Shown here in pieces: positions 59,046-60,898 of a stretch of DNA of 64,000 nucleotides. Position 1 is the first letter of the stretch. Each line of letters begins with the position of its first letter. The DNA is from Sedimentisphaerales bacterium (lineage in GTDB: Bacteria > Planctomycetota > Phycisphaerae > Sedimentisphaerales > Anaerohalosphaeraceae), in contig JANQGW010000098.1 of assembly GCA_028282905.1 (NCBI GenBank), positions 1 to 64,000 of the forward strand, in the 5' to 3' direction. Below the pieces are notes generated by a model. It was not told the DNA's origin. It searched no databases and was given only the letters and a program-made list of their open reading frames with translations. The position numbers and the translations under genes were made by a program.

Positions 59046-59332
59046 CGCTTTTTCCTTCCTGCATTTAACATGAATGGTTTTGGACGATTTTGATCCTGCC
59101 TGACAAACTCCATTATAACAAGCGGAAACTGTCTTTTCAACAGTGAAATTATCCGGTTTCAAATCGCCCTCCTGCGTTCAATCCCATTGAAATACCCCTT
59201 GGAACAACTCACGTATACCAAAAAAATTTTACCCATTCAATAATTATTGCACCTGGTTTTGAACCTGATGTCAATGCGTTCCTGTTATTATCAGACGGAG
59301 GGTTCGTTTGCCCTTGAATACCCCCGTCAGCC

Positions 59333-59361
59333 TTGATTTTTGACTTATTTTCAGCTATACT
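59333..59361 (+). promoter_or_regulatory. Promoter of the candidate non-coding RNA
   Basis: TTGATT (59333-59338), exactly 17 nt, then TATACT (59356-59361). The predicted start is near 59368. No ribosome site and coding frame with support follow. Confidence 0.65.
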
Positions 59362-59367
59362 GCGGTC

Positions 59368-59598
59368 AGTATTGAAAAGCTATTTTGGGGTGAGAAAGAG
59401 TGATGAAAAAATTGACGCGAAAATTTTGTTTTTGGTTTGTGCGCCGCCGGAAAGACCGGCAGGCCTATCCGGTACAGGTTGCGAAACGACCGACAAAACA
59501 CGCCTTAAATACCTGGCGCACGATTTAACTTTGTGCAAACTGAAGCTAACATGGTTTCGACCATGATAAGCCGTCTGCTTGTTGCCGACGGCTTTTTT
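59368..59598 (+). ncRNA. Candidate structured non-coding RNA, unassigned
   Basis: About 230 nt lie between a good promoter and a strong terminator. A closing stem GTGCGCC (59439-59445)/GGCGCAC (59515-59521) encloses hairpin GCCGG-AAAGA-CCGGC (59446-59460). It also encloses an arm AGGC (59461-59464)/GCCT (59502-59505) containing GGTTG-CGAAA-CGACC (59477-59491). A separate hairpin CATGGT-TTCG-ACCATG lies at 59550-59565. The G-U pair in the inner hairpin favours plus-strand transcription. It lacks recognisable tmRNA, SRP, RNase P or common riboswitch motifs. No gene follows in the same direction, so a trans-acting RNA is more likely than a riboswitch. Confidence 0.55.
59568..59598 (+). terminator. 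Intrinsic terminator of the candidate RNA
   Basis: AAGCCGTC (59568-59575) and GACGGCTT (59587-59594) form an 8-bp stem with an 11-nt loop, followed directly by TTTT. Confidence 0.8.
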
Positions 59599-59644
59599 CG
59601 CGCGCATTTTATTTCAAACGTGTTCAAATAATACTCGTGTGTTT

Positions 59645-59710
59645 TGTCATACCCGCGCAGGCGGGTATCCAGAGGGTTTCGCATAGATTCCCGCCTTCGC
59701 GGGAATGACA
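59645..59710. repeat. REP/MITE-like inverted repeat element
   Basis: TGTCATACCCGCGCAGGCGG begins the element and CCCGCCTTCGCGGGAATGAC ends it. The ends are ~24-bp imperfect inverted copies, and each is itself a small hairpin (ACCCGC/GCGGGT and TTCCCGC/GCGGGAA). This style of 66-bp element is common in diverse bacteria as a non-autonomous repeat. Confidence 0.65.
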
Positions 59711-59758
59711 AATAGACCGGGCTGAATTTTTCATTAAACAGGTCTCATTTAGCTGGTA

Positions 59759-60898
59759 TCAAAATTTCAAATATCCAGCGGCTTTGGTCAGGAGTTTACC
59801 GGGCTTGCCGATATCACTGATGCGGCGTATACGGTATTGCTTGCGATATTTGAGAATGCGGTTGACCGTCACCAGACCCATCCCCGGCACACGCAGCAAG
59901 TCATGCTTGCTTGCGTTATTGATATCCAGCGGGAACATTTGTGGATTCCGATCCGCCCAGACTTGTTTGGGGTCTTTCTCAAGCGACAGTTTCCCATCCG
60001 CGCCAAAAACAATCTCGTTGTCCGAAAAGCCGTACTTTCGCATCAGAAAATCCACCTGGTAAAGCCGATGCTCGCGTGTCAACACATTGGCGGGATTGGT
60101 CGGCGATGCGTTTTCGGCCGGCAGATTCACATCACCCAACCCTCGCTGATAAGCACTGAAATAAATGCGGTTCAGATGAAGTCGATCATACAGGCCGCCC
60201 ATGTAGCGGACAATATCGTAATCGTTTTCATCGGCAGCACCAACAATGAACTGCGTGGTTTGATGCACCTTTTGGAACCGATTGCCCTTACCGGTCAGGC
60301 GGCTGATAAGCTTGATCGGTTCGATGATGTCCCGAATATAGTCTTTCTTGTTCGATAATTTCACAAGATTGCCAGCACCCGGCGTTTCAATGTTAAGCGA
60401 AACCGCATTGGCCAGTGACAAAGCATCCTCAATCGCCGACGGACTGGCTCCGGGGATGATTTTCAAATGGATGTAGTCCCGGAACCGATGGCGGTATCGC
60501 AAAATGCGGGCGATGGCATTAATACGCTGCATCGTATTATCGGGCGAACCAATGACACCGGACGAGATAAAGATACCGAAAACCTTCTTTTGCCGGTAGT
60601 ACTCCAGGAACAACCGAACCGTCTCTTCAGCCTCCAGCGTACATCGTCGGATATCCATATTGTCCCGCAGCGGACAATATTTGCAGTCGTTGGCACAAAC
60701 ATTCGACAGCAGAATCTTGAAAATACTCGCCTTGCCGCCGTTGGGCAGCGTGATTGGGTAAATCCATTTTCCGTCATTGCCGCGAACGCGGTGTTCGTCC
60801 TTTTTCGAACCGCACGCGCATGCCAGATCGTACTGGGCGTCGGCACTGAGGATCTTCAGCTTCTCGATGGTATCGGGTTTGCGGATAATCGCGGTCAT
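59759..60898 (-). CDS. Putative DNA modification/repair radical SAM protein
   Basis: The 379-residue product carries a radical SAM cluster motif CANDCKYC at Cys68, Cys72 and Cys75 inside KILLSNVCANDCKYCPLRDN. SGVIGSPDNTMQRIN and LHLKIIPGAS-type strands complete the barrel (IHLKIIPGASPSAIEDA). QFIVGAADENDYDIVRYMG follows. The C-terminus has a helix-hairpin-helix DNA-binding unit (LDINNASKHDLLRVPGMG then VNRILKYRK). This matches the family annotated as putative DNA modification/repair radical SAM proteins. The usual partner, a uracil-DNA-glycosylase-like/DUF4130 protein, is not adjacent. The exact reaction is unknown. Confidence 0.88.
   Translation of the reverse strand: MTAIIRKPDTIEKLKILSADAQYDLACACGSKKDEHRVRGNDGKWIYPITLPNGGKASIFKILLSNVCANDCKYCPLRDNMDIRRCTLEAEETVRLFLEYYRQKKVFGIFISSGVIGSPDNTMQRINAIARILRYRHRFRDYIHLKIIPGASPSAIEDALSLANAVSLNIETPGAGNLVKLSNKKDYIRDIIEPIKLISRLTGKGNRFQKVHQTTQFIVGAADENDYDIVRYMGGLYDRLHLNRIYFSAYQRGLGDVNLPAENASPTNPANVLTREHRLYQVDFLMRKYGFSDNEIVFGADGKLSLEKDPKQVWADRNPQMFPLDINNASKHDLLRVPGMGLVTVNRILKYRKQYRIRRISDIGKPGKLLTKAAGYLKF

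What the first reader, a model, noticed from the sequence alone, without database searches (positions are those of the whole stretch)
59333..59598. Free-standing structured RNA gene with its own promoter and terminator
An exactly 17-spaced promoter, a multi-arm fold with a 7-bp closing stem and three inner or side hairpins, and an intrinsic terminator occupy a gap with no supported coding frame. One inner hairpin pairs only on the plus strand through a G-U pair. I could not match it to tmRNA, 6S, SRP, RNase P or a riboswitch family. No plus-strand gene follows for 1.4 kb, so it likely acts in trans.
Basis: partly seen in the sequence, partly recalled or inferred. Interest (0 to 1): 0.78.

Follow-up and report, generated by a model that had tools for sequence, protein, structure and literature searches.

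The report
Orphan small-protein gene, probably not ncRNA
A short stand-alone transcription unit in a Phycisphaerae-type bacterium has a promoter and a strong terminator, but it looks more like the mRNA of a tiny, basic, 41-42-residue protein found in no relative than like a new structured RNA.

Summary
The promoter (TTGATT-17-TATACT) and intrinsic terminator are real and together far from chance (0 of 3000 shuffles), so 59333-59598 is probably a real plus-strand transcription unit. First, the multi-arm fold dominates only if the 93-nt core is cut out. In the predicted transcript its closing stem has about 13% probability, and 15% of intergenic strands in this genome contain a 93-nt stretch folding as well. 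Second, the gap does have a supported reading frame: GTG 59400/ATG 59403 to TAA 59528 (41-42 codons). It has a 7-nt Shine-Dalgarno match (GGGGTGA) and a stop 64 nt before the terminator T-run, the spacing seen after many ordinary genes here. Codon statistics are supportive in one model, neutral in another. No homologue turned up as DNA, protein or covariance model in genus or family, or as DNA or protein in about 400 genomes of the class; Rfam and Pfam are blank, and neither neighbour keeps this gap in the genus. Best reading: a species-restricted (orphan) monocistronic mRNA for a small basic protein; a lineage-specific sRNA is the main rival. Neither can be proved without RNA-seq and ribosome profiling. 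Interest is low to moderate.

The parts
59333..59361 (+). sigma-70-like promoter TTGATT-17-TATACT
   Evidence: 9 of 12 matches; sequence; together with the terminator 0 of 3000 shuffles
59387..59393 (+). Shine-Dalgarno-like GGGGTGA (7 consecutive pairs with the GGAGGTGA complement, one G-U)
   Evidence: such a match precedes 0.3% of internal start codons and 3% of gene starts in this genome
59400..59528 (+). small ORF, GTG 59400 or ATG 59403 to TAA 59526-59528: (M)MKKLTRKFCFWFVRRRKDRQAYPVQVAKRPTKHALNTWRTI, strongly basic
   Evidence: stable when the core is folded alone, about 13% probability in the transcript; no homologous structure in relatives
59550..59565 (+). 6-bp hairpin CATGGT-TTCG-ACCATG in the 3' untranslated part
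   Evidence: pair probability about 0.8
59568..59598 (+). intrinsic terminator, 8-bp stem and run of T
   Evidence: 0 in shuffled sequence; pair probability about 1

Best explanation
A short monocistronic gene. Transcription starts around 59367-59370 from the 59333 promoter, ribosomes bind GGGGTGA at 59387-59393, a 41-42-residue very basic protein is translated from GTG 59400 or ATG 59403 to TAA 59528, and transcription ends at the intrinsic terminator at 59598. The protein is restricted to this species as far as can be seen. Its composition (13 K/R and 1 D/E, an FCFWFV patch in a single predicted helix) suggests a nucleic-acid- or membrane-binding small protein, but that last step is inference only. 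Shown: the signals in the sequence and their non-randomness. Inferred: transcription, translation and any function.
For: Promoter plus strong terminator. SD match of 7 nt before GTG/ATG; a shuffled transcript has an ORF of at least 41 codons in 23% of cases, with this codon score in 0.6%, and with an SD of 6 or more in 0 of 5000. Composition-corrected codon score equals the median of real genes, top 5% of intergenic small ORFs and top 0.4% of simulated ORFs. The stop is 64 nt before the T-run; nine of the 20 strong terminators in this genome sample lie 45-77 nt after the stop of an ORF of at least 90 aa. Of eight strong terminators checked without a long gene immediately upstream, only two follow an ORF with an SD of 6 or more: this one and an 80-aa basic MAKKKAAKKK... 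gene in L153, also SD 7 and 66 nt.
Against: A third-order periodic model gives the ORF only 0.006 bits/nt, about the lowest tenth of real-gene pieces and matched by 20% of intergenic ORFs; a second frame of the same stretch scores as well in both models. No homologue of the protein in own genus, family, class or phylum samples, phages or plasmids, and no Pfam, NCBIfam or PHROG family. AlphaFold2 on the single sequence gives only a helix 6-21 at pLDDT about 76 and low confidence elsewhere.
Confidence: 0.58

Rival explanations
1. A lineage-specific non-coding sRNA of about 230 nt with its own promoter and terminator, acting in trans by base pairing; the ORF is incidental.
For: Free-standing promoter and terminator, no downstream plus-strand gene for 1.4 kb; 3' hairpin plus terminator as in many sRNAs; trans-acting sRNAs are often poorly conserved (general knowledge); the third-order coding score is neutral.
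Against: The proposed fold is a minority conformer and folding energy is not unusual for this genome's intergenic DNA. A strong SD and start sit about 33 nt into the transcript. No DNA or covariance-model relatives; the best genus hit is antisense inside a conserved protein gene.
Confidence: 0.27
2. A dual-function RNA: a regulatory RNA that also encodes the small protein (SgrS/SgrT-like arrangement).
For: Both an ORF with SD and structured 3' elements occur in one short transcript.
Against: No independent evidence for a regulatory part.
Confidence: 0.05
3. No functional gene: a decaying or recently arisen non-functional gap in which promoter, terminator and ORF came together by chance or are remnants.
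For: No conservation anywhere searched; the gap also carries a dispersed palindromic repeat.
Against: Promoter plus terminator plus ORF with SD is very unlikely in shuffled sequence.
Confidence: 0.1

Closest known systems
Orphan or taxonomically restricted bacterial small-protein genes (sORF-encoded proteins of 50 aa or less)
   Same: Own promoter, SD, short basic ORF, terminator; missed by ordinary annotation; no family match
   Different: Translation not shown; no homologue; function unknown
Intergenic trans-acting sRNAs with intrinsic terminators
   Same: Stand-alone promoter and terminator, about 230 nt, hairpins at the 3' end
   Different: Contains an ORF with a strong SD; no stable dominant fold; no target or chaperone evidence
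SgrS-type dual-function RNAs
   Same: Short transcript with a small ORF
   Different: No regulatory seed or homologue identified

Membership tests
Rfam structured RNA families (tmRNA, 6S, SRP, RNase P, riboswitches and others) | Score at or above the family's gathering threshold | tested here: not met
   none; best match overlapping the target was RcsR1 at 18.3 bits against a threshold of 60
tRNA/tmRNA | ARAGORN detection | tested here: not met
Conserved structured non-coding RNA | Stems kept by compensatory changes in relatives | tested here: inconclusive
   No relatives found by DNA or covariance model, so covariation cannot be measured
Conserved structured non-coding RNA | Folding clearly stronger than background of the same genome, with a defined dominant fold | tested here: not met
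Bacterial small-protein gene | Start codon with ribosome binding site, open frame, terminator at 3' UTR distance | tested here: met
Bacterial small-protein gene | Coding-type base composition in frame | tested here: inconclusive
   supportive, neutral
Bacterial small-protein gene | Conserved homologues with protein-level selection (strengthens the case; not required of an orphan gene) | tested here: not met
Bacterial small-protein gene | Ribosome footprints or peptide | not testable with these tools
   needs Ribo-seq or proteomics
Dual-function RNA (SgrS type) | Separate regulatory base-pairing part besides the ORF | not tested
   no target prediction was run

The most novel reading that the evidence does not exclude
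A new lineage-restricted structured trans-acting RNA (possibly also encoding a small protein) in Phycisphaerae, with no relative in any RNA family.
Probability: 0.1. Interest if true: 0.45.

Novelty: new member of a known kind. Interest (0 to 1): 0.2.

Why it matters
If translated, it is one more species-restricted small basic protein, in a phylum for which my paper search found no differential RNA-seq study. The case also shows how a GC-rich coding stretch between a promoter and a terminator can be read as a structured RNA. If it proved to be a trans-acting RNA instead, it would be a Planctomycete-specific sRNA, a little-charted group.

Tried and rejected
DNA search in own genus, family and order and 397 class genomes: only 21-34-nt chance matches. 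Protein search of the ORF in family, class and phylum: weak hits inspected, lying in spurious or long unrelated frames. Pattern scans of viral contigs for two peptide stretches: only 8-12-residue coincidences. Phage and plasmid tblastn: none. Covariance models of one sequence: best genus hit (G007) is antisense within a 425-aa conserved protein gene and was rejected. Synteny with either neighbour: the phasin-ubiB pair is conserved but its other side is clpP or unrelated genes in the genus; the radical-SAM gene has other neighbours too. tmRNA and Rfam families rejected; a separate sub-threshold 6S-like match lies on another contig. The 64- or 77-codon frame overlapping the ORF (59333/59372-59566) was rejected: no SD and a neutral score.

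Full report
Observation. The letters are as described. TTGATT (59333-59338) and TATACT (59356-59361) are 17 nt apart, and a terminator with an 8-bp stem and T-run ends at 59598. The promoter score of 9/12 alone is common: 2.2 sites are expected per 2.3 kb by shuffling. The terminator is not common: a scan for equally strong ones found 20 in 366 kb of this genome (both strands) and none in shuffled sequence, and no shuffle of the gap out of 3000 had such a terminator 150-320 nt behind a promoter. A plus-strand transcription unit is therefore likely.

The fold. In the predicted transcript 59367-59600 the same closing stem has probability 0.13, and 0.02 without the 3' hairpins; other long pairings win. 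Over longer stretches z is only -1.0 to -2.1. When the best 93-nt stretch is taken in each of 120 intergenic strands of the same genome, 15% fold as well relative to shuffles. The single U-G pair in the hairpin 59477-59491 is real but is one base pair. Rfam is silent and ARAGORN finds nothing.

The coding frame. GTG 59400/ATG 59403 to TAA 59528 encodes (M)MKKLTRKFCFWFVRRRKDRQAYPVQVAKRPTKHALNTWRTI. It is preceded by GGGGTGA (59387-59393), a 7-nt run that can pair with the 16S tail; 3% of long genes but 0.3% of internal start codons in this genome have one as long. In shuffled transcripts an ORF this long is common (23%), but with this codon score it is 0.6%, and with an SD of six or more it is 0 of 5000. 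A codon model puts the ORF at the median of true genes. A stricter third-order periodic model is neutral and does not separate it from a second overlapping frame, so composition alone does not decide. The 64-nt distance from stop to T-run is what many ordinary genes in this genome show: nine of the 20 strong terminators lie 45-77 nt after the stop of an ORF of at least 90 aa. Of eight strong terminators checked without a long gene immediately upstream, only two follow an ORF with a strong SD: this one and an 80-aa lysine-rich gene on another contig (L153, SD 7, 66 nt). That second case works as an internal example of a small basic gene built the same way.

Relatives. The DNA finds only itself in the own genome and 58 relatives, and only 21-34-nt chance matches in the class. 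The protein finds nothing convincing in 39 family genomes, 397 class genomes and 392 phylum genomes, or in phages and plasmids. In the genus the phasin-ubiB pair keeps its order, but the gap beyond it leads to clpP or other genes, and the radical-SAM gene also has other neighbours. The element is thus restricted to this species as far as these collections show, and neither covariation nor protein selection can be measured.

Verdict. Inferred: transcription, translation, and the small-protein reading (about 0.6) over a lineage-specific sRNA (about 0.27). The function of the protein is unknown; its basic composition suggests binding to nucleic acid or membrane, which is a guess. The single-sequence structure prediction gives only one helix at modest confidence.

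Noticed in passing
window 59636-59720: Imperfect palindromic REP/MITE-like repeat (TGTCATACCCGCGCAGGCGGGTATCC...GATTCCCGCCTTCGCGGGAATGACA) with 45 matching places listed across the own genome; it also produces the weak FtrB and CRISPR-repeat Rfam matches.
   Followed up: partly
window 59112-59140, minus strand: Near-consensus extended promoter (TTGAAA-17-TATAAT with TG, 11 of 12) for the phasin-like and ubiB genes, divergent from the reported unit.
   Followed up: no
window 59759-60898, minus strand: Radical SAM protein of the TIGR03916 type (putative DNA modification/repair), 295 bits against a cutoff of 343, with a C-terminal helix-hairpin-helix.
   Followed up: no
L256 (own genome contig C174:2338-2526, minus): Full-length 6S RNA match below Rfam's threshold (33 bits against 46.4, E 1.3e-4): possible divergent Planctomycete 6S RNA.
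   Followed up: no
L153 12957-13199, minus strand: 80-aa lysine-rich protein (MAKKKAAKKKVAKKKATKKK...), strong SD and its own terminator 66 nt downstream; histone-H1-like composition.
   Followed up: no
L037 and L039, upstream of the phasin gene: In two genomes of another genus of the family the stretch beyond the phasin gene holds a conserved terminator-like hairpin (GCCGGCAA...TTGCCGGC plus T-run), perhaps another small transcription unit.
   Followed up: no
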